DNA from: an uncultured Verrucomicrobiales bacterium | Lineage (GTDB): Bacteria; Verrucomicrobiota; Verrucomicrobiae; Limisphaerales; CANJSG01 | Reading direction: 5' to 3' | Assembly: GCA_946480965.1 (NCBI GenBank) | Contig: CAMLMI010000137.1 | Location: forward strand, 1-11,049 | DNA length: 11,049 nucleotides | The notes under the pieces: generated by a model | Seen by the model: the letters and a program-made list of their open reading frames with translations, nothing else | Database searches by the model: none | Told to the model about the DNA's origin: nothing | Position numbers and translations under genes: made by a program | Shown: in pieces, positions 362 to 11,049 of the stretch | Layout of the letters: every line of letters begins with the position of its first letter | Numbering within the stretch: position 1 is the first letter of the stretch

Positions 362-1195
362 TCACCCACCAATCATCTTCAGCGCGTCGTCCACGTCGGT
401 GCCGTCGTGGACCATCGCCATGAGGGCACGGACGATGCCGGCGGGGTTGGCGTGCTGGATGATGTTGCGGCCATAGACGATGCCGTGGACGCCCTGCTCC
501 AGCAGGCCTTTCGTGCGGACGAGGATCTCGCGGTCGCTGACTTTGCCGCCGCCGCGCACCAGCACGGGAATTCCGCCGGCGGCTTCCACGACCTTGTGAT
601 AGCGCCCGACGTCGTCAGTCGGATCGGCCTTGAGGATGTCGGCGCCGAGTTCCACGGCTTGGCGGGCGAGGTGGACGATCTTGGTTTCGTCGCCATCGAC
701 CATGTAGCCGCCGGCCTCGGAGTTGGGCCGGAAAACGAGCGGCTCGACCATCATCGGCATGGCGTAGTGGTCGCTCTGCACCTTCAGGCGAAGGATGTTC
801 TCGATGCACTGCTCGGTCACTTCGGGCGCGCCGGGGATTTGGAACAGGTTCACGCAGACGCAGGCGGCATCGAGCCGCACGGCCTGGAGCATGGCCTCAT
901 CGAGCATCGCGCTGTAGCGCGCGGCGGGCAGTTCCTTGCCATAGACGTTGGCGGCGTCCACGCGGAGAACGAGGCGCGGCTTGAGGTGGCCGGGGACGTT
1001 CTGCAAATGCCGCGCCTGACCGGTGGTGAGCTGGATGGCGTCCGGCCCGGCGGCGACAAGCGTGGCGACGGTCTTGCGGATGTCCTCGATGCCGGTGAGG
1101 AAGCCCGGCTGGTTGAAGAAGCCGTGGTCCACCGCCACGTCGAAGCAGCGGCCGGACTTGGCGTTGAAGAGGCGGTTGAGGCGAAAGGCTTTCAT
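362..1195 (-). CDS. Class I aldolase, DeoC/LacD/LsrF-type TIM barrel
   Basis: A 277-residue cytosolic enzyme, full length for the family (PF01791, Schiff-base aldolases). An early AVDHG motif lies at residues 21-25, where LsrF and archaeal-type fructose-bisphosphate aldolases carry DHG. Lys189 in GADILKADPTDD sits where the Schiff-base lysine is expected. The C-terminal VLVRGGGKVS (211-220) and GIVYGRNIIQ (238-247) match the phosphate-binding GGGK and GRNI loops of LsrF. The segment MVEPLVF (149-155) replaces the WxYPRG segment of archaeal fructose-bisphosphate aldolases and looks more like LacD, so the substrate cannot be fixed; a phosphorylated ketose or deoxy-sugar is likely. The gene follows the isomerase by 10 bp on the same strand with no clear Shine-Dalgarno, suggesting translational coupling. 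Cleavage of a keto-sugar made by the neighbouring isomerase, after phosphorylation, is inferred. Confidence 0.85.
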   Translation of the reverse strand: MKAFRLNRLFNAKSGRCFDVAVDHGFFNQPGFLTGIEDIRKTVATLVAAGPDAIQLTTGQARHLQNVPGHLKPRLVLRVDAANVYGKELPAARYSAMLDEAMLQAVRLDAACVCVNLFQIPGAPEVTEQCIENILRLKVQSDHYAMPMMVEPLVFRPNSEAGGYMVDGDETKIVHLARQAVELGADILKADPTDDVGRYHKVVEAAGGIPVLVRGGGKVSDREILVRTKGLLEQGVHGIVYGRNIIQHANPAGIVRALMAMVHDGTDVDDALKMIGG

Positions 1196-1205
1196 GTCGG
1201 TCGGA

Positions 1206-2249
1206 TCAGCGGACGCCCATGAGATGCTTCAGGATGAAGAGTTCAAGCCCTTCGTAGTCGCGGACCTCGATGTAGGCGCGCTCGGCTTCGCGGTCCAAGG
1301 TGCGGACCTTCTCGACGAGATGCAGGAAGATCTCGCGGCTGTTGGCCAGGTGGCTGGTCACGGGGTTGCCGTTCTGCGTGCGCATGGCCTTCACGTCGAG
1401 ACCGACGAACTCGCCGTTCCGGCCGTAGCCGTTTTCTTCCAGCACGCGGACCTGGTTGAACGCCGCGCGCAGATTGGCCGCGCCGAAGTTTTTGTCCTGA
1501 TCGTATTTCAGGCCGTTCTGGTCGTTGAGGTGGACGCTGGCCAGCTTGCCGTGGGCCAGGGCGAAGGCCATTTCGTCGGACGGATCCAAGCCGGCGAGCA
1601 GCGCGTGGGCGGTCTCGATCAAGCCCTTCACGCGCTTCGGATCTTTGGATGCGTAGGCGAGCGTGAGGGCATGACCGATGGTGGGCACGTAAGCTTGGTC
1701 GGTCGGCTCGTTGGGCTTGGGCTCGATCCAGACTTCGATCTCCGAGTCGTGGTCGAGCATCCGGTTGATGACCTCCAGGAGGCGCTGGTAGGCGGTCACG
1801 GCGTTCTTCGCTTCACGGAGGTAGGTGCCTTCGCGCGCGAGCCAGAGGACGATGGCCTTGCAGCCCACGGCGCGGGCGATGTCGATGGAGCGGAGCGTGC
1901 GGTCGAGGGCGTATTGGCGCTCGACGGCGGAGTTGGAGGTGTAGCCGCCATCGACCGTCTGCGGGGCGAACCAGAGGCGTGGCGCGACGAACTCGGGGAC
2001 CAGGCCCTGGTCCCTCAACTGCCTGCCGACCGCTCCGGCTTTTTCCAGGACTTCGGCGGCGGTCAGGTCATCGACGCCGGGAACGACATCGTCGTCGTGG
2101 AACTGCACGCCCTCGAAGCCGAGCGGGCGGTATAGGGCGAACTTGGCCTCGTGGTCGAAACGGCGGCGCGTTTCCGGGCCGAAAGGATCGGCGCCTTCGC
2201 TGATGTTCCAAGGGCCGAAGGAGAAGCGGTAGTTCACGGGAGTGCTCAT
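1206..2249 (-). CDS. Xylose isomerase-like sugar isomerase (TIM barrel)
   Basis: A 347-residue cytosolic protein of the AP endonuclease 2/xylose isomerase fold (PF01261). It resembles class I (actinobacterial) xylose isomerases throughout: FSFGPWN and DPFG near the N-terminus, GVQFHDDD (47-54) with the catalytic His51 and Asp54, DGGYTSN (100-106), EPKPNEP (176-182) with metal ligand Glu176 and Lys178, then Glu212 and His215 (IETAH), Asp250/Asp252 in KYDQD, and Asp285 in LDVKAMR. The stretch between the HLND segment (240-243) and KYDQD is about two residues shorter than the HIDLNGQ segment I recall from Streptomyces xylose isomerase. The expected reaction is metal-dependent aldose-ketose interconversion, perhaps xylose to xylulose, but the sugar is unproven. 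The start at 2249 puts the SFGPWN motif in its usual place. It is first in the minus-strand pair and divergent from an AraC regulator that may control it. Confidence 0.85.
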   Translation of the reverse strand: MSTPVNYRFSFGPWNISEGADPFGPETRRRFDHEAKFALYRPLGFEGVQFHDDDVVPGVDDLTAAEVLEKAGAVGRQLRDQGLVPEFVAPRLWFAPQTVDGGYTSNSAVERQYALDRTLRSIDIARAVGCKAIVLWLAREGTYLREAKNAVTAYQRLLEVINRMLDHDSEIEVWIEPKPNEPTDQAYVPTIGHALTLAYASKDPKRVKGLIETAHALLAGLDPSDEMAFALAHGKLASVHLNDQNGLKYDQDKNFGAANLRAAFNQVRVLEENGYGRNGEFVGLDVKAMRTQNGNPVTSHLANSREIFLHLVEKVRTLDREAERAYIEVRDYEGLELFILKHLMGVR

Positions 2250-2369
2250 GTGTGGGCGAACGCTACCTCGCGCCGCAGCGGGCCGCTACGTCTGGAAGCT
2301 CAACCGCTGGCACTATCGTCTCACCTCCTGGCTTGCCGAAGCCCGTTGCTCCGTCCAATCGTGCCAGCC
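2250..2369. promoter_or_regulatory. Divergent spacer between isomerase and AraC gene
   Basis: This 120-bp gap separates two divergent starts and must contain, or overlap, both promoters. CGCTAC occurs twice, at 2261-2266 and 2284-2289, 23 bp apart. That spacing (about two helical turns) would suit the two-site binding of AraC-type proteins, but a 6-bp repeat is weak evidence in GC-rich DNA. I see no convincing -10/-35 pair and no Shine-Dalgarno for either gene. Confidence 0.35.
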
Positions 2370-3284
2370 ATGCAGTCCCCGCGTGAAACCATCCGGCTGC
2401 CCTCGGGGCGGACCTTCCGCCTGTTGCGCTGGCGGCGGGACCTCGCGCACGTGGAGGTCGTGGAAGGCCCGGGACGGGTTTCATCGACCCGGGGATTCGG
2501 AGCGCACTGGCACTACCATCCGGAGCTGGAGCTGACGCTCTTCCTCAAGGGTTCGGGCACGAGGTTCGTGGCGGACCACATCGAGCTCTTCGAGCCGGGG
2601 GATCTGGTGCTGCTGGGTGCGAACGTGCCGCACACCTGGCATCCCAAGGGCGCTTCGGCCGGGATCTCGCTGCAATGGGATCTCCCGCTGAACCACGGTC
2701 TCTGGGAGATCGGGGAGATCGCCGCGCCGCTGCGCCGACTCTGCGATCAGGCCTTGCGCGGACTCTTGGTGCGGGGGGTGACGGCTGCCGGTGTCGAGAA
2801 GCAGATGGAGCGGATCGCGGGCCTCGACGGACTCGGGCGTTTCGCGGCCTTCCTCGAATTGCTCGGGCTCTTGGCGGAGGCCCCGGCGGCCCATCTGCGG
2901 CCCCTGTCGGAGCGGCCCTTTGCCCTCGCGGGCACGGCCGAGCAACAGGAAGCCATCCGCCGCGCGGTCAGCTACATCCTCGCGCACTACCGCGAAGCCG
3001 TGCGGCTGGAGGATCTGCACGCCTTGACCGGGATGAGCCGGGCGACGTTCGCGCGGCAGTTCCAGCGGCACGCGGGGAAACCGTTCTCGACGTTCCTGAA
3101 CCAGGTGCGGCTCCAGGCGGTGTGCCGGGCGCTGCGCGACACGGGGGAAGCCATCGGGGCGATCGCGCTGGGAAACGGGTTCAACCAGCTCTCGTTCTTC
3201 AACCGGCTCTTCCGCCGGGAATGCGGCGTGTCGCCCGGCGAATACCGGGAGCTGGCCCGGAAGAAACGGGATTGGAAGAGGTAG
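2370..3284 (+). CDS. AraC-family transcriptional regulator with cupin sensor
   Basis: A 304-residue DNA-binding regulator of usual AraC-family length. Residues about 40-95 form a cupin-type effector domain, with HWHYHPELEL (46-55), the turn motif EPGDLVLLGANVPH (75-88) and a following HTWHP. Residues about 193-295 are the double helix-turn-helix domain: VRLEDLHALTGMSRATFARQ (211-230) is the first HTH, and the second ends in the family signature GFNQLSFFNRLFRRECGVSP (270-289). The frame stays open upstream to 2151, but ATG 2370 is the only start that leaves a normal N-terminus and does not overlap the isomerase gene. It is divergent from the isomerase-aldolase pair, so local control of those genes by a sugar is likely (inference). 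Its last codons and stop lie in the left arm of a long inverted repeat. Confidence 0.9.
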   Translation: MQSPRETIRLPSGRTFRLLRWRRDLAHVEVVEGPGRVSSTRGFGAHWHYHPELELTLFLKGSGTRFVADHIELFEPGDLVLLGANVPHTWHPKGASAGISLQWDLPLNHGLWEIGEIAAPLRRLCDQALRGLLVRGVTAAGVEKQMERIAGLDGLGRFAAFLELLGLLAEAPAAHLRPLSERPFALAGTAEQQEAIRRAVSYILAHYREAVRLEDLHALTGMSRATFARQFQRHAGKPFSTFLNQVRLQAVCRALRDTGEAIGAIALGNGFNQLSFFNRLFRRECGVSPGEYRELARKKRDWKR

Positions 3285-4146: not shown

Positions 4147-6660
4147 ATGAACACCGCGTCGAGGACCCCGGACGGCCGCCCGGGTGCGCTTGCGAGCCGA
4201 GGCCACCGTCATTCCCCGGGTTTCCCAACTGGCCGATGGGCCTTGCCGGCACTGCTGCTCCCGGCCTTCCTGACGACCGCCGATCTCCGGGCCGAAGTCC
4301 CCGGCATCATCCACCACCAGGGCCGCCTCGCCATCCACGGCACCAATTTCAACGGCTCGGCGCAGTTCAAGTTCTCCCTCGTCGCCACCAATGGCCAGGG
4401 CGACACCGTGACGCTCTGGAGCCACAACGGCACCGGAACCGCCGGAGCCGAACCCGCCGCGCCCGCGCTGGCGCTGCCGGTGACGCACGGCGTCTTCTCC
4501 GTCGCGCTGGGCGACGTGTCGGTCGCGAACATGACCGCGCCGATCCCGGCCACGGTCTTCACCAATTCCGAGATCTGGCTCCGCGTCTGGGTCAATGACG
4601 GTGTCAATGGTTCCCAACCCCTTTCTCCGGACCGCCGCCTCGCTTCGGTCGGCTACGCGCTCGTGGCCGGCTCCGTGCTCGGCACCACGCCCGCTTCCAC
4701 CAACTTCACCGGTTCGCTCGCGGGCGACGTCACCGGCACCCAAGCCGCAACGGTCGTGGAAACGGTCGGCGGATTGTCCGCTGCGGACGTGGCTGCTGGC
4801 GCGACGCTGGCCAACGACGCCACCGCGCTGAACACGGCCGAGACGATTGTCCGCCGCGATGCGAACGGCGGCTTCTCCGCCGGAACCGTCACCGGCTCGT
4901 TCGTCGGCAACGCGGCGGGTTTGACCAATTTCCCGGCCGCCCAGCTCACCGGCACGGCGGCTTCGGCCACGAACTTCGTCGGCGGCCTCGTCGGCGATGT
5001 CGGCGGCACGCAGGCCTCGACCGTTGTCCTGACCGTCGGCGGCCAGGCCGCGACCAACATCGCCTCCGGCGCGGTGCTCGCGAACGCCGCCACTTCCCTC
5101 GCCACCAGCAACGCCATCGTGCGCCGCGACGCCGACGGGAACTTCGCCGCCGGTGTCGTCACCGGCACCTTTGTCGGCAACGGCCAGGCGCTGACCAACC
5201 TCACCGCCGTCAACCTCGTCGGCATCGCGCCCGCCGCGACCAACTTCACCGCCCCGCTCGTCGGCGACGTGGTCGGCGGACAGACCACCACCGAGGTGAA
5301 GACCGTGGCCGGGCTCGGCGCGACCAACGTGGCCGCCGGCGCGATCCTGGCCAATGCCGCCTCCAGCTCGAACGTGCTCGGGGCCATCGTCCGCCGCGAG
5401 GACTGCTACGGCGACTTCGAGGCCGGCACGGTCCGCGCGACCGCGTTCGTCGGCGACGGCTCGGGACTGACCAATCTCCCCACTTCCCCCTCCTCCTTCC
5501 TGGCACCATCCGGTTCGCTGCTGGTCTCGCTGCTGGAGGCCGATTCCTCCCTCATCTCCGCCGGCTATCGCCGCATGATGACCGTGCCCGCTCCCGGCTG
5601 GGTCAACGGCTCCTCCACCGGCGTGCCCTCGGCGCGGGCGGGCCACTCGACCGTCTGGACCGGCACCGAGATGATCGTCTGGGGCGGCAGCGGCAGCTCC
5701 GGCACGCCCTTGAACAGCGGCGGCGGCTACGCGGCCGACACGGACGCTTGGACGACGCTGACCACCGTCGGGGCACCCGCCGCCCGCAGCGGCCACACCA
5801 CCGTCTGGACCGGCACCGAGATGATCGTCTGGGGCGGCCAGGGCGGTTCCGGCAACCTCGGCACCGGTGGCCGCTACTCGCCGAACACGCTCTCCTGGAC
5901 GGGGCTTTCCACCACCGGCGCCCCCGAGGCCCGCCAAGGCCACGCCGCCGTCTGGACCGGCTCCGGGATGATCGTCTGGGGCGGGCTGAACATCGCCGGC
6001 CTGCGCAATGACGGAGCGATCTACGACCCCGCCAACAACACCTGGACCCCGCTGCCCACCGAAGGCGCGCCCGAAGGACGCCGCGGCGCGGTGGCCGTCT
6101 GGGGCGACAACCGCCTCATCGTCTGGGGCGGAGAGGGCGAGTCCGGCGATCTCGCCACCGGCGGCCAACTGCTCTTCACGAACGGCGTGCCCTCCGTGTG
6201 GACCCCGATCAACCCCACCAATGCCCCGGCCGCCCGCAGCGGCCATTCCGCCGTGTGGTTCGGCGACAAGATGTTCGTCTGGGGCGGCAAGAACGGCGGC
6301 GTGGTCTTCGGCGACGGCGCGGCCTACTGCGCGCACTGCGACACTTGGTTCCCCGTCTCCTCCACCAATGCCCCCTCGCCGCGTTTCGACGCCTCGATGA
6401 TCGCCACGACCACGGGCTTTGCCGTCTTCGCCGGGGCCAACAACGGCGGCGACCTGAACAACGGCGCCACCTACGACCCGGCCAACAACGAATGGCTGCC
6501 CCTTTCCACGCTCGGTTCCCCGCTCGCCCGTTCCGGTGGCGGCGGCGTCTGGACCGGCACGGAACTCCTCCTGTTCGGCGGCCGCTCGGGCGGCTCCGCC
6601 GTCGCTTCCCCGCAACGTCTCGTTCCCCAGCCCACCTGGTATTTCTATCGCAAGCTATGA
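4147..6660 (+). CDS. Exported fibre-repeat and Kelch-propeller protein
   Basis: An 837-residue secreted or surface protein of unknown role. A signal peptide with a long polar n-region and a hydrophobic core WALPALLLPAF (31-41) ends near LRA-E (49/50). Residues about 52-180 are a module starting GIIHHQGRL and ending in RRLASVGYALVAGS, also found in the tail-collar gene of this cluster. Three repeats of exactly 90 residues start at 185, 275 and 365. Each has a GDVxGxQ strand, a VAAGAxLANxA strand, an IVRRDA(D/N)G core and a GNxxxLTN end. Seven Kelch-like blades of 49-52 residues follow, with GHxxVWTGTEMIVWGG cores; the WGG-type strands begin at 509, 559, 608, 657, 709, 758 and 807. A Kelch propeller suggests ligand or partner binding, and the repeats suggest a stalk. 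GTG 4129 is a possible earlier start. The stop overlaps the next start as ATGA. Confidence 0.85.
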   Translation: MNTASRTPDGRPGALASRGHRHSPGFPTGRWALPALLLPAFLTTADLRAEVPGIIHHQGRLAIHGTNFNGSAQFKFSLVATNGQGDTVTLWSHNGTGTAGAEPAAPALALPVTHGVFSVALGDVSVANMTAPIPATVFTNSEIWLRVWVNDGVNGSQPLSPDRRLASVGYALVAGSVLGTTPASTNFTGSLAGDVTGTQAATVVETVGGLSAADVAAGATLANDATALNTAETIVRRDANGGFSAGTVTGSFVGNAAGLTNFPAAQLTGTAASATNFVGGLVGDVGGTQASTVVLTVGGQAATNIASGAVLANAATSLATSNAIVRRDADGNFAAGVVTGTFVGNGQALTNLTAVNLVGIAPAATNFTAPLVGDVVGGQTTTEVKTVAGLGATNVAAGAILANAASSSNVLGAIVRREDCYGDFEAGTVRATAFVGDGSGLTNLPTSPSSFLAPSGSLLVSLLEADSSLISAGYRRMMTVPAPGWVNGSSTGVPSARAGHSTVWTGTEMIVWGGSGSSGTPLNSGGGYAADTDAWTTLTTVGAPAARSGHTTVWTGTEMIVWGGQGGSGNLGTGGRYSPNTLSWTGLSTTGAPEARQGHAAVWTGSGMIVWGGLNIAGLRNDGAIYDPANNTWTPLPTEGAPEGRRGAVAVWGDNRLIVWGGEGESGDLATGGQLLFTNGVPSVWTPINPTNAPAARSGHSAVWFGDKMFVWGGKNGGVVFGDGAAYCAHCDTWFPVSSTNAPSPRFDASMIATTTGFAVFAGANNGGDLNNGATYDPANNEWLPLSTLGSPLARSGGGGVWTGTELLLFGGRSGGSAVASPQRLVPQPTWYFYRKL
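4699..5490 (+). repeat. Three in-frame repeats with a 270-bp period
   Basis: Repeat units begin at 4699, 4969 and 5239, exactly 270 bp (90 codons) apart. The third unit is slightly shorter and more divergent; it contains EDCYGDFEAG where the others read DANGGFSAG or DADGNFAAG. The DNA has diverged between copies while the protein pattern is kept, which points to an old internal duplication under selection for length, not a recent tandem expansion. Confidence 0.85.
5650..5838 (+). repeat. Identical 39-bp stretch in adjacent propeller blades
   Basis: Positions 5650-5688 and 5800-5838 are identical over 39 bp and lie exactly 150 bp (50 codons) apart. They encode the TVWTGTEMIVWGG strand of blades 1 and 2. 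Identity at the nucleotide level, including wobble positions, suggests recent gene conversion or duplication between these two blades, since the other blades have drifted. Confidence 0.85.
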
Positions 6661-8465
6661 AGAGGCCTCTCCGCATCCTCCCCCTCGTCCTCGGCGCGCT
6701 CCTCGCCGCCGTCGGCTCCGCCCGAGCCCAGTGGACCACCCAGTCCATCGCGCTCAAGGCCGGTTGGAACGCCGTGTTCCTGCACGTTGACGCGTCGCAC
6801 GACACGCTGGCGAACCTGGTCGCGGCCGACGTGAACAACCCCATCACCGAGGTTTGGCTCTGGGCCCCGCCCGCCGCCACCCTCCAGTTCGTCCAGAGCC
6901 CGCAGCAGCCCGTGGACACCAGCAGCCAATGGATGAGCTGGAAGCGCAACGCCATGGGGGCCTCGCTCCTCCAGCGGCCCATCGGCAATGCCGCCTACCT
7001 CGTCCACGTCTCGACCAACGTCGCGAACTACACCTGGACGATCAAAGGCAAGCCCGTGCCGCCGCACTACGAGTGGAGCACGAGCGGTTTGAACCTCATC
7101 GGCGTGCCCAGCCACCCCTCCACCCCGCCGACCTTCGAGTCCTTTTTCGCCAACGCGCCCGAGCTCCAGCAGAACGCCGAGGTTTACCACTACCCCGGCG
7201 GCCCGCTCGGCGCCGGCAATCCCGCGCGCCTCTACACCCTGCGCACCACGCCCATCCCGCGTGGCAAGGCGTTCTGGATCCGCTCCGGCAACGTCTTCAA
7301 CCGCTACTTCGCCCCGTTCGAGACCGTGTTGAACAACCCCAAGGGCCTTGAGTTCTCGGACTCGCTCGGTGTCGTCAGCTTCCGCCTGCGCAACCTCGCC
7401 CTGACCAACGTCACCGTCACTCTGGGCCTCCACGCCTCCGCCACGCCGCCCGCCGGCCAGTCGAACATCGTGGCCGTGCCGCCGCTGCTCGTCCGCGGAC
7501 CGCTCAACACCACCAACCTCACCTATACCTACACGCCCCTTGCCGAGAACGGCACCCATAGCTGGACCCTCGCGGCCAAGGGCCAGCCCGGAGCGGACGT
7601 CGAGGTCGTCCTCGCGCTGAACCGCTCCGCGATGTCCGGCAACGTCGGCGCGCTCTACGCCGCGCTCATCCGGTTGAACGACTCCTTCGGCCATTCGCAG
7701 GTCGAGCTCCCCGTGTCCGCCACCGTCGCCTCCGAAGCCGGCCTCTGGATCGGCAGCGCGGTCATCACCCACGTGCGCGAGTCGCTGAAGACCTACGAGC
7801 AGGGCCCCTCCGGCACCGTGATCTCGACCAACGGCGAATACGTCGTCGCCGGCACCAGCACGAACCTCGGCGCGGTGCCCAAGAGCTTCCCGCTCCGCCT
7901 CATCGTCCACAACCCCGAGCCCGGCGGCCACGCCCAGCTCATGCAGCGCGTCTATCTCGGCCTGAATCCCCAGACCAACTACGTCGTCGCCACCCGCGAA
8001 TCGGCGCTCGACACCGACCATCTCGACAAGGCCCGCCGCGTCAGCGCCAGCCACCTGCCCTTCACCGCCACGAACGAGACCTGGGCCTTCAACGGCACCC
8101 TCGGCGGCCAGCCCACCCTGACCACCTCGGTCGTGCTGGACTTCAACGACCAGGAGTCGAACCCCTTCCTCCACACCTACCACCCGGACCACGACGGCCT
8201 GGACGGCTCGTTCCTCAACGAGCTGCCGCGCGGTTCGGAATCCTACAGCGTCCGACGCGACATCACGCTCCACGTGGTCCCGCCGGGCGACGGCGTGGGC
8301 AATCTCAACGCCGGGGGCCAGACCCTCGCCGGCACCTATTCCGAAACCGTCACCGTCCTCGGCCTGCAGCGCGGGGGCGGCCAGAACGACTCCCGCTCCT
8401 ACGAGATCCAGGGCGTCTTCAGCCTCAACCGCGTCTCCGCCACCCCCGTCCTGACCCGTCCTTAA
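6657..8465 (+). CDS. Exported protein of unknown function (GWNAVFLHV type)
   Basis: A 602-residue protein with a clear signal peptide: basic MKRPLR, hydrophobic core to about 20, cleavage after SARA (A24). The mature start reads QWTTQSIALKAGWNAVFLHV. I recall this kind of beginning, with a tryptophan-rich EVWLWAPP strand after it (65-72), from Verrucomicrobiota hypothetical proteins. Later segments look like repeated beta domains: GLWIGSAVITHV near 362, LRLIVHNPEPGG near 413, and SNPFLHTYHPDHDGLD from about 501, a histidine- and aspartate-rich motif that could bind metal. The end YEIQGVFSLNRVS looks like a final beta strand pair. No enzyme motif or membrane anchor is visible. ATG 6657 overlaps the preceding TGA (ATGA), so translation is probably coupled to the propeller gene. 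The frame continues open upstream inside that gene, but the signal peptide fixes this start. Confidence 0.85.
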   Translation: MKRPLRILPLVLGALLAAVGSARAQWTTQSIALKAGWNAVFLHVDASHDTLANLVAADVNNPITEVWLWAPPAATLQFVQSPQQPVDTSSQWMSWKRNAMGASLLQRPIGNAAYLVHVSTNVANYTWTIKGKPVPPHYEWSTSGLNLIGVPSHPSTPPTFESFFANAPELQQNAEVYHYPGGPLGAGNPARLYTLRTTPIPRGKAFWIRSGNVFNRYFAPFETVLNNPKGLEFSDSLGVVSFRLRNLALTNVTVTLGLHASATPPAGQSNIVAVPPLLVRGPLNTTNLTYTYTPLAENGTHSWTLAAKGQPGADVEVVLALNRSAMSGNVGALYAALIRLNDSFGHSQVELPVSATVASEAGLWIGSAVITHVRESLKTYEQGPSGTVISTNGEYVVAGTSTNLGAVPKSFPLRLIVHNPEPGGHAQLMQRVYLGLNPQTNYVVATRESALDTDHLDKARRVSASHLPFTATNETWAFNGTLGGQPTLTTSVVLDFNDQESNPFLHTYHPDHDGLDGSFLNELPRGSESYSVRRDITLHVVPPGDGVGNLNAGGQTLAGTYSETVTVLGLQRGGGQNDSRSYEIQGVFSLNRVSATPVLTRP

Positions 8466-8515
8466 AACCATCCTTCGTCCAACCCGTCCTTTTTAGATCC
8501 AAGATCCACACCGCC
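8466..8515 (+). other. Short intergenic spacer
   Basis: A 50-bp gap between two exported-protein genes. ACCCGTCCTT occurs at 8454-8463, across the stop codon, and again at 8482-8491. A run of five T (8490-8494) follows the second copy, but no stem precedes it, so I do not call a terminator. Read-through into the next gene is likely. Confidence 0.4.
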
Positions 8516-9688
8516 ATGAAAACGTTCCGCAACCTGTTCCGCTCCCTGACCCTCGCCGCCCTCGGCCTGGCCCTCCTCGGCACCGACCTCCGGGCCGCCA
8601 ACGGCCGTCCCCCGGAAAAGATGTCCTACCAGAGCTATCTGGTGGACGCGAACGGCCTGCCGCTCGGCAACAACGGCCCGAAGAACTACGACGTGATCTT
8701 CCGCATCTACAACGACCAGTCGGCCACCGCCGCCGGCAACCGCGTGTGGAGCGAGCAGCAGACCATCACCGTGGACAACGGCTACTTCAGCATCCTGCTC
8801 GGCGAGGGCAACGCCTACGCCAGCGAGGCGCGCCCGCCCCTCTCCAGCGTGTTCACGAACATGGCCGACGCTTCCGACCGCTTCATTGAAATGACGGTCA
8901 AGGGCATCGGCGCCGGCGGCACGGACTCCACCATCGCCCCGCGCGTCCGCCTCCTGCCCGCCGCCTACGCCTACCTCGCCACCACCGCCGTCAACGCCAA
9001 CAACCTCGTCAACTCCAGCCACGGCACCGTGGTCAACGTCAGCGGCAGCAACGTCGGCATCAACCAGGGCAACCCCGGCGCGAACCTCGACGTGAACGGC
9101 ACCTTCAAGGCCAATTCCGCCACCATCGGCGGCAACCTCGCCGCCGGTTCCTTCACCACTGCGGGCGGACTCACCGCTTCCGGCACGGTCACCGCCGGCA
9201 ACCTCACCACCTCCGGAACGCTCACCGCCCCGACCGTCAACTCCTCGGGCACCGTTACGGCCAGCAAGTTCGTCGGCGACGGCACCATCCCCGTCGGCGG
9301 CATCATCCTCTGGTCCGGCACAGTTGGAAACATCCCCAGCGGCTGGGCCCTCTGCAACGGCAGCACGGTCAACGGCCAGCTCACCCCCGACCTCCGTAGC
9401 CGCTTCGTCGTCGGTGCCGGCAGCACCTACAGCCCCGGCAACACCGGCGGCAACGACCAGATCACCCTCACCGTCGCCCAGCTCCCGCCCCACAGCCACG
9501 GCTTCAAGGACGGCTACTATGCGGAAAACCAAGGCTTGGGCCAGAAGGTGGCCGGGTCGGACGAGGGCCGGGACTTCGACAACGACGTCTACGAGCGCAA
9601 CTCGACCACGTCGAACACTGGCTCCGGTGCCGCCATCGACATCCGCCCCCGCTACTACGCCCTTGCCTACATCATGCGCGTGCGTTGA
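8516..9688 (+). CDS. Exported protein with phage tail-collar-like C-terminus
   Basis: A 390-residue protein. Its signal peptide (MKTFRNLFR, hydrophobic 11-22, cleavage near DLRA-A at 27/28) shows it is secreted through the membrane, unlike true phage tail fibres. Residues about 35-158 form the module seen in the propeller protein: SYQSYLVDANGLPL, a VWSEQQTITVDNGYFSILLG strand pair and PRVRLLPAAYAYLA. Residues about 195-255 are a Ser/Thr/Gly-rich run with repeated TxxGxLTA(S/G)GT units, typical of a trimeric fibre shaft. Residues about 258-390 match the tail-collar or short-tail-fibre type: IPVGGIILWSG, IPSGWALCNGS, TPDLRSRFVVGAG, QLPPHSHGF and the end RPRYYALAYIMRV. The His-x-His in PPHSH is the usual trimer-tip signature. 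It follows the previous gene by 50 bp without a Shine-Dalgarno. It may be the tip of a surface fibre. Confidence 0.88.
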   Translation: MKTFRNLFRSLTLAALGLALLGTDLRAANGRPPEKMSYQSYLVDANGLPLGNNGPKNYDVIFRIYNDQSATAAGNRVWSEQQTITVDNGYFSILLGEGNAYASEARPPLSSVFTNMADASDRFIEMTVKGIGAGGTDSTIAPRVRLLPAAYAYLATTAVNANNLVNSSHGTVVNVSGSNVGINQGNPGANLDVNGTFKANSATIGGNLAAGSFTTAGGLTASGTVTAGNLTTSGTLTAPTVNSSGTVTASKFVGDGTIPVGGIILWSGTVGNIPSGWALCNGSTVNGQLTPDLRSRFVVGAGSTYSPGNTGGNDQITLTVAQLPPHSHGFKDGYYAENQGLGQKVAGSDEGRDFDNDVYERNSTTSNTGSGAAIDIRPRYYALAYIMRVR

Positions 9689-9733
9689 TCCCGGCCGAAA
9701 CGTCGTCGTCCACCTCGACCCCACTCTCGGCTT

Positions 9734-11049
9734 ATGAGAATCACACGAAAACTCGGGCTCCTTGCCGGCTGGTTGCTGGCAGGCACGGGTCTGCTACGCG
9801 CGGCGGAAAGCCTGCCGCTCGAGCTGCGGCAAAACTCCACGCCGCACAACTACCAGTCCCTGCGCGGCGTCCCCATCTCCGCCACTCCCGGCTCCCCTGT
9901 CGGCTCCGACGGACGGATGCCCACAGGCCTCAACGGATCGGGCAGCTACACCACGCCCACCATCGGCCAGTTCCAGGGCTTCGGCCCGTTCAGCGGCGGA
10001 GCCTCCGCCACGAACAAGACGCTGCTCAAGAACGCGGGCGGACTGGACGGCACCCACTCCTTTAACGCCGCCATCGCCGACGCCATGCAGTTGCCCTCCG
10101 CCAAGACCGCGGGCAACGGCCGCATGATCCAGCGCCGGGTCACGGTGGGCGCGCCGTTCCTCGGCCGCCAAACCTCGCTCTCCTTCGGCTCCATCGTCTC
10201 GGTGCCCATCACCGACGAGAAGGGCACGCTGCTCTCCGGGGTTTCCGCCGCAAGCTACTGGATTCCCGAGCCCTACGGCGTCGAATCCGGCCTGGACTCC
10301 GGCTTCTACTGGAGCCCCCACGCGCGGAAAGTCTTCGCCATCCAGTCCGGCCCCATCCGCATCACCTGGCGCAAGTCCGCCCCCTACACCGCCGCCACCG
10401 TTCCGACGTCCTATGTGAACCCCGGAGGACCGGTCAGCTTCGAGACCAACGGCACCAGCATCTATCTGCTCTACACCGATTCGCTCGTCGTCTCCGGCAG
10501 CTCGGTGAAGCCCGCCAAGAAGATGTATTGGACCGAGCGCGAATACCGCCTGCTCGGCAAGCCCGTCTCCATCCCGCCCGCCCGCATCGGCGGCGTGAAC
10601 ATCGTTTACAACAACAACTTCCCCCGCACCGTGGAGCAGGAATACCGCGGCCCGGGCTACACCAGCCCGACCGAAGGGAACGAAAACGAGACCCTCTCCG
10701 AGCTGCGCACCCTCTGGTATGACCAGACCCAGGGCTTCCTCTACGCCTACAACCTCGAGGGCCGCGTCTTCGTCGAGTTGCTCGGCGACGCCAATGCCGA
10801 CGGCCAGACCCGCCAGCACCTCGGCTTCGAGCTGGTGGACGTCATCCAGCAGCCCAGCCCGGCCGACGTCTCCATCGAGCTCGGCGAGCGCATCGTCCCG
10901 CCCTTCGGCTCGGCCGACGACCTGACGCCCGACCCCATCCTCCAGGCCGGCAGCCCGCAGTTCGGCTTCAAACACGTCGTCGTCGGCAACAACCGTCAGA
11001 ACCTCTACGCCCAGATCGAGACCCGCAGCCTGAACGACTACCTCGTGCA
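9734..11049 (+). CDS. Large exported protein, 3' end beyond the window
   Basis: An open frame from ATG 9734 runs without a stop to the window edge: 438 complete codons plus two bases. Codon use is like its neighbours. The signal peptide is clear: MRITRK, hydrophobic core LGLLAGWLLAGTGLL, cleavage near LRA-A (23/24). The mature part has no domain I can name with certainty. Visible segments are RIGGVNIVYNNNFPRTVEQE, TLWYDQTQGFLYAYNLEGRV and a DANADG sequence (352-357) that has the spacing of a calcium-binding DxNxDG loop, as in dockerin or thrombospondin type 3 repeats. The pattern recalls very long repeat-rich exported proteins of Verrucomicrobiota. It starts 45 bp after the tail-collar gene, with no Shine-Dalgarno, and is probably the fourth gene of the same operon. 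Total length and C-terminal sorting signals cannot be seen. Confidence 0.82.
   Translation, partial: MRITRKLGLLAGWLLAGTGLLRAAESLPLELRQNSTPHNYQSLRGVPISATPGSPVGSDGRMPTGLNGSGSYTTPTIGQFQGFGPFSGGASATNKTLLKNAGGLDGTHSFNAAIADAMQLPSAKTAGNGRMIQRRVTVGAPFLGRQTSLSFGSIVSVPITDEKGTLLSGVSAASYWIPEPYGVESGLDSGFYWSPHARKVFAIQSGPIRITWRKSAPYTAATVPTSYVNPGGPVSFETNGTSIYLLYTDSLVVSGSSVKPAKKMYWTEREYRLLGKPVSIPPARIGGVNIVYNNNFPRTVEQEYRGPGYTSPTEGNENETLSELRTLWYDQTQGFLYAYNLEGRVFVELLGDANADGQTRQHLGFELVDVIQQPSPADVSIELGERIVPPFGSADDLTPDPILQAGSPQFGFKHVVVGNNRQNLYAQIETRSLNDYLV

What the first reader, a model, noticed from the sequence alone, without database searches (positions are those of the whole stretch)
4147..11049. Exported fibre, propeller and tail-collar gene set
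Seen: four adjacent genes, all with signal peptides. One pairs 90-residue repeats with a seven-bladed Kelch propeller, and another ends in a phage tail-collar-like tip. Known: tail-collar domains normally trimerise at the end of phage fibres made in the cytoplasm. Inference: this bacterium has combined phage-like tip modules and a propeller into a secreted surface or envelope structure, possibly for adhesion or substrate capture. I know of no named system with this composition.
Basis: partly seen in the sequence, partly recalled or inferred. Interest (0 to 1): 0.72.

Follow-up and report, generated by a model that had tools for sequence, protein, structure and literature searches.

The report
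Verrucomicrobial fibre and Tc-like operon
Four neighbouring export-tagged genes are the start of a conserved operon that pairs swappable-tip fibre proteins with a giant protein whose rear part is predicted to fold like the injection channel of Tc toxins, so it may be an unrecognised contact or delivery machine of environmental bacteria.

Summary
The four genes are real and belong to a conserved operon. In 80 loci chosen by gene B, a C-type gene follows in 70 of 72 testable and a D-type gene in 58 of 60. The Kelch gene A precedes B in only 33 of 58, so A is accessory. Hosts are mainly Verrucomicrobiota. A and C share an N-terminal domain (hhalign 95%); C's is a distant relative of the anchor domain of Bdellovibrio mosaic adhesive trimers (MAT). 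C tips vary: S74 24, collar 21, Kelch 9 of 73. So the collar tip has a published precedent in kind.

The surprise is D: the window holds 438 residues of a 2,600-3,100-residue protein. A model of a relative's last 1,194 residues finds only Tc-toxin A subunits among its 21 PDB hits at E<=0.001. But confidence is modest, coiled coils tie on the helices, and sequence profiles see nothing.

Best reading: an exported recognition-plus-channel apparatus. The canonical TcB gene was not found in 52 of 56 D-carrying genomes; payload, and whether it injects, are unknown.

The parts
4147..6660 (+). Gene A: export-like N-terminus, MAT-type N-terminal domain, three 90-residue repeats, seven-bladed Kelch propeller (accessory gene)
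   Evidence: upstream of B in 33 of 58 testable loci
4282..4686 (+). N-terminal domain of A, related to that of C
   Evidence: alignment A7, hhalign probability 95.2, E 2.6e-8 to A8; NF053851 only E 0.017 for A itself
4723..5532 (+). Three 90-residue fibre-type repeats of A
   Evidence: 50-61% identity between units
5614..6582 (+). Kelch propeller of A
   Evidence: PF24981 residues 490-719 and PF24681 residues 598-812; seven blade cores
6657..8465 (+). Gene B: exported-type all-beta protein without Pfam family; model has a PapD/ASH-like Ig domain
   Evidence: ATGA overlap with A
8516..9688 (+). Gene C: MAT-like mosaic fibre protein with tail-collar tip
8591..9010 (+). MAT-type N-terminal domain of C
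   Evidence: NF053851 E 6.3e-6, 26.1 bits, cut-off 60; alignment A8
9233..9679 (+). Tail-collar tip of C
   Evidence: phrog_1800 residues 240-388; PF07484 residues 261-295
9734..11047 (+). Gene D, first 438 residues (runs off the window): N-terminus of a giant protein family with a Tc-A-like predicted C-terminal fold
   Evidence: 30-53% identity to the fronts of 18 complete D frames of 2,615-3,127 residues; fold of a relative's C-terminus

Best explanation
A conserved, exported recognition-plus-channel apparatus of Verrucomicrobiota. SHOWN by computation: the gene order B-C-D, with A in front in about half, is conserved; A and C share a MAT-type N-terminal domain and C carries swappable tips; D is a giant protein with a strongly conserved C-terminal part. 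PREDICTED: that part folds as two very long helices with a hydrophobic turn, then a beta domain, in the same order as the pore-forming and TcB-binding domains of Tc-toxin A subunits. INFERRED: the products leave through Sec and assemble at the cell surface; A and C grip a partner cell or particle with their tips; D enters or spans a membrane with its helical hairpins, and something docks on its C-terminal face and passes through. B (pilus-chaperone-like Ig domain) and E (TSP3 repeats, usually next after D) would be scaffold parts. The docked partner or payload is not identified.
Confidence: 0.5

Rival explanations
1. Purely adhesive surface layer. A, C and D are large attachment proteins (to polysaccharide, algae or particles). 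D's long helices are a stalk and its C-terminus an anchor or assembly domain; nothing is translocated.
For: MAT-type fibres are adhesive in Bdellovibrio (PMC10769870). Divergent D neighbours carry LamG, cadherin-like and Calx-beta domains. The canonical TcB gene was not found in 52 of 56 D-carrying genomes.
Against: D's hydrophobic-tipped long hairpin plus C-terminal beta domain matches Tc A specifically in Foldseek, and the C-terminal part is the most conserved, which is more than a plain stalk needs.
Confidence: 0.33
2. The Tc likeness is a coiled-coil artefact. D is a giant secreted protein of unknown fold whose two long helices attract Tc A chains in fold searches.
Against: Unrelated coiled coils begin only at Foldseek E 0.22, over seven orders of magnitude weaker than the best Tc hit. 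The non-helical C-terminal domain matches the isolated TcB-binding fragment.
Confidence: 0.13
3. A domesticated phage tail or prophage remnant that supplies the collar tip and its neighbours.
For: Collar tip and phage tail families in C; repeats of A weakly match a phage structural family (phrog_697).
Against: All four genes have export-like N-termini; window neighbours are metabolic genes; no relative of D in viral contigs; the tip is swapped between S74, collar and Kelch on the same N-terminal domain.
Confidence: 0.03

Closest known systems
Mosaic adhesive trimer (MAT) superfamily of Bdellovibrio bacteriovorus (PMC10769870; abstract, sections 10 and 16 and passages seen)
   Different: Matches stay under the curated cut-off (26 against 60 bits for C). 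Here the genes sit in a fixed operon with B and the giant D. Kelch and collar tips are not among those in the parts I read (no match for 'kelch' or 'tail collar' in the paper).
Tc (ABC) toxin A subunit, TcA (PMC11435725, passages; PDB fold hits)
   Same: Giant protein; predicted long-helix hairpin with hydrophobic turn followed by a C-terminal beta domain like the TcB-binding domain.
   Different: No Tc Pfam family, no detectable sequence similarity, canonical TcB mostly not found, an export-like N-terminus, and MAT-like fibre genes beside it. In Yersinia entomophaga Tc toxins are released by lysis (title and abstract start of PMC10847048, listing only).
Phage tail-collar fibres (phrog_1800, PF07484)
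   Same: The C-terminal tip of C.
   Different: Export-like N-terminus, MAT-type domain and operon context; only the tip is shared.

Membership tests
MAT superfamily (genes C and A) | conserved beta-rich N-terminal domain of about 130 residues right after the signal peptide | tested here: inconclusive
   NF053851 in 65 of 73 C proteins at E<=1e-3, best 4.6e-12; over the cut-off in 0 of 10 operon genomes; A itself E 0.017, related to C by profiles
MAT superfamily (genes C and A) | variable C-terminal tips, S74 or other adhesive domain | tested here: met
   S74 24, Collar 21, Kelch 9, H_lectin 1 of 73
MAT superfamily (genes C and A) | trimeric fibre on the cell surface | not testable with these tools
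Tc toxin A subunit (gene D) | C-terminal pore-forming helices followed by a TcB-binding beta domain | tested here: inconclusive
   21 of 21 Foldseek hits at E<=0.001 are Tc A, but low-confidence model and coiled-coil ties
Tc toxin A subunit (gene D) | sequence family PF18276 (TcA_TcB_BD) | tested here: not met
   over cut-off in 0 of 16 D-carrying genomes; no Tc family in Pfam scans of D members
Tc toxin A subunit (gene D) | TcB and TcC partners | tested here: not met
   TcB mid domain PF12256 over cut-off in 2 of 16 genomes and 4 of 56 D-carrying genomes of the sample; TcC was not searched
Tc toxin A subunit (gene D) | homopentamer, helical shell, neuraminidase-like domain | not tested
   only the last 1,194 residues were modelled, as a monomer; the first 270 of them have pLDDT mostly under 50
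Phage tail or prophage | neighbouring structural phage genes | tested here: not met
   the upstream window neighbours are metabolic or regulatory genes; no D relative in viral contigs

The most novel reading that the evidence does not exclude
A phylum-wide class of exported Tc-like injectors in Verrucomicrobiota that separates aiming from translocation: MAT-type fibres with swappable tips (A, C) recognise the target cell, and the giant D forms the channel without the usual TcB/TcC cocoon, possibly with another operon product (for example A's propeller, where present) on its docking face. It would be a contact-dependent weapon or predation device.
Probability: 0.25. Interest if true: 0.9.

Novelty: new variant of a known kind. 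Interest (0 to 1): 0.74.

Why it matters
D-type proteins were found in 56 of 387 sampled genomes of the phylum, and 1,304 relatives of one divergent lineage scored at E<=0.001. In the 120 listed, the names given are 'hypothetical', HYDIN/VesB/CFA65-like or choice-of-anchor D proteins; none is a Tc name. If the fold holds, a large group of environmental bacteria owns a channel-type machine that sequence tools do not recognise, and the Bdellovibrio MAT design (one anchor, many tips) is wider than predators. Cultured carriers of D-type genes exist (Pelagicoccus mobilis and Verrucomicrobiae DG1235; Prosthecobacter and Luteolibacter), so it can be tested.

Tried and rejected
Own genome: none held. 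Rfam: no hit in the window. Terminator-like sites 2 against 4.7 in shuffles, promoter-like sites 0 against 0.3. A-B fusion in P0075: set aside, since part of the joined protein looks out of frame (by eye). B fold: PsbO-like barrels and PapD/ASH Ig domains with low TM-scores, read as common folds only. Tc relation by sequence: profiles A3, A4 and A5 against PDB sequences gave mostly coiled-coil, designed-helix and other helical chance hits and no Tc A; Pfam on D members gave no Tc family, NCBIfam likewise; profile A5 on the TcA-bearing genome G330 gave nothing, which the tool says shows little by itself. D with canonical TcB: 4 of 56 against 8 of 331, p 0.08, not convincing. A as core gene: rejected. 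Profiles found no Kelch or N-terminal domain in the frames just upstream of B in the 25 Kelch-less loci; L022 has Kelch frames some 3.5 kb further up. Of ten upstream frames from eight of the 25 loci that were scanned, nine have other families and one has none; three of them (L049, L057, L031) are kinases with WD40 or Reg_prop propellers, not followed up. Phage origin of D: no relative in viral contigs. Papers: searches listed none on this operon (one search listed 10 of 13). Passages of PMC3482391 do list Verrucomicrobia among carriers of TcdB/TcaC-type polymorphic toxins, and PMC8550312 speaks of TcC in eight rhizosphere genomes and, apart from that, of adhesins in Verrucomicrobia. That nothing on this operon is in print rests on these searches of open-licence papers only. 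A first regex for Kelch blades returned nothing and was replaced by a looser one.

Full report
1. What is there. The region carries four adjacent genes on the + strand: A 4147-6660, B 6657-8465, C 8516-9688 and D from 9734 off the window end. A's stop and B's start overlap as ATGA; by coordinates the other gaps are 50 and 45 bases. Upstream lie unrelated genes: a DeoC/LacD-type aldolase, a xylose-isomerase-like protein, an AraC-type regulator and a nucleoside diphosphate kinase. Named relatives of B in the listing are Verrucomicrobia; those of D too, except two called Chitinophagia.

2. Conservation. I aligned 25 B proteins and scanned one genome per species: 353 relatives, best 80 loci kept. 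Frames of these loci were searched with pieces of the window's proteins. Counting only loci with enough sequence, a Kelch gene stands just upstream of B in 33 of 58, a C-type gene just downstream in 70 of 72, a D-type gene downstream in 58 of 60. The loci were chosen by B and are related, some from one genome, so the counts are not independent. In the two testable loci without D (L064, L078) the C-type genes carry Kelch repeats. Profiles found no Kelch or N-terminal domain next to B in the other 25 loci; ten frames from eight of them have other families or none. The core is therefore B-C-D, with A optional. A gene E follows D in 21 of 28 rows and a gene F in 8 of 15; the sequences that built those two profiles are among the rows, and two genes appear twice. 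Of five E proteins scanned, all match bacterial TSP3 repeats and three pass the cut-off; three of three F proteins pass for MORN_2.

3. Genes A and C are MAT-like. C matches NF053851, the N-terminal domain of the Bdellovibrio mosaic adhesive trimers, at E 6.3e-6 and 26 bits against a cut-off of 60. Of 73 C proteins (the window's and 72 complete ones from the loci, some loci giving two or three), 65 match at E<=0.001, best 4.6e-12. In 10 of 10 operon genomes the family rings, never over the cut-off; comparing coordinates, each has a hit beside a B gene, and in nine (not G005) that is the best hit. Tips vary: Peptidase_S74 24, Collar 21, Kelch 9, H_lectin 1 of 73. A's N-terminal domain aligns to C's by profiles (probability 95.2, E 2.6e-8), while A alone reaches only E 0.017 to NF053851. 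[quoted passage not shown]). So exported proteins with phage-like tips have a published precedent.

4. Gene D is a giant. The window's 438 residues match the fronts of 18 complete frames at 30-53% identity (best L004, 2,669 residues). These frames are 2,615-3,127 residues long (set). Two of them scanned whole have no Pfam family at E<=1. Conservation is highest around residues 1,450-1,950 and 2,250-2,669 of L004 and lower between. D's C-terminus was found in 56 of 387 genomes drawn from the phylum of DG1235, mostly in open frames of 2,400-3,800 residues, a few shorter. For one divergent lineage (L107; its listed match is Prosthecobacter debontii) 1,304 relatives scored at E<=0.001. In the best 120 the C-terminal region is 57-100% identical while the precomputed Pfam domains, where any, vary; the names given are generic and none is a Tc name.

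6. Partners. Canonical Tc toxins work with TcB and TcC. The TcB mid domain is over cut-off in 2 of 16 D-carrying genomes, and SpvB in the same two. In the 387-genome sample it is in 4 of 56 with D and 8 of 331 without (p 0.08). PF18276 of canonical TcA is in 1 of 387. MAGs can be incomplete, so absence is only likely. The 2021 survey reports TcC proteins mostly in Proteobacteria (96.4%) and Firmicutes (3.2%) and holds no word starting 'verrucomicrob' (PMC7861908, two passages); a 2012 survey does list Verrucomicrobia among carriers of TcdB/TcaC-type toxins (PMC3482391, passages).

8. Verdict. The Kelch-collar combination is a variant of a known mosaic-fibre design and not the constant part. 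The constant parts are B, the MAT-like C and a giant D with a likely Tc-A-like end. A recognition-plus-channel apparatus is the best reading (0.5); a purely adhesive system is the main rival (0.33). D does not qualify as a Tc toxin A subunit by family or partners; it may work like one.

Noticed in passing
window 362-3284: A DhnA-type aldolase and a xylose-isomerase-like gene on the - strand beside an AraC-type regulator on the + strand; looks like a sugar-use cluster.
   Followed up: no
L059, L064, L076, L078: Several adjacent C-type genes with the MAT-like N-terminal domain and Kelch repeats, like an expanded propeller-tip set.
   Followed up: partly
L106, L107, L109, L112: Divergent giant D genes (3,073-3,844 aa) with a B-like frame upstream and, downstream, a large protein with RTX, cadherin-like or Calx-beta domains.
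   Followed up: partly
L081 and L086 (Verrucomicrobiae DG1235): Two separate copies of B-C-D in one genome; the second B frame is 1,043 aa with a gap in the match.
   Followed up: no
L081 4186-4743, L082 17192-17749, L090 1833-2462: A MORN_2-repeat protein two genes after D; such repeats also occur in proteins called antitoxins (recalled), so an immunity role is conceivable.
   Followed up: no
   Followed up: no
G005 C12:93445-98182: A match to the MAT N-terminal domain lies about 2.5 kb before a TcB-type gene (SpvB, TcdB mid domain), away from that genome's D operon on C79.
   Followed up: no
L084 8376-17008 (same gene as in L014): The D gene is split over two frames in this MAG; left as it is.
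   Followed up: no
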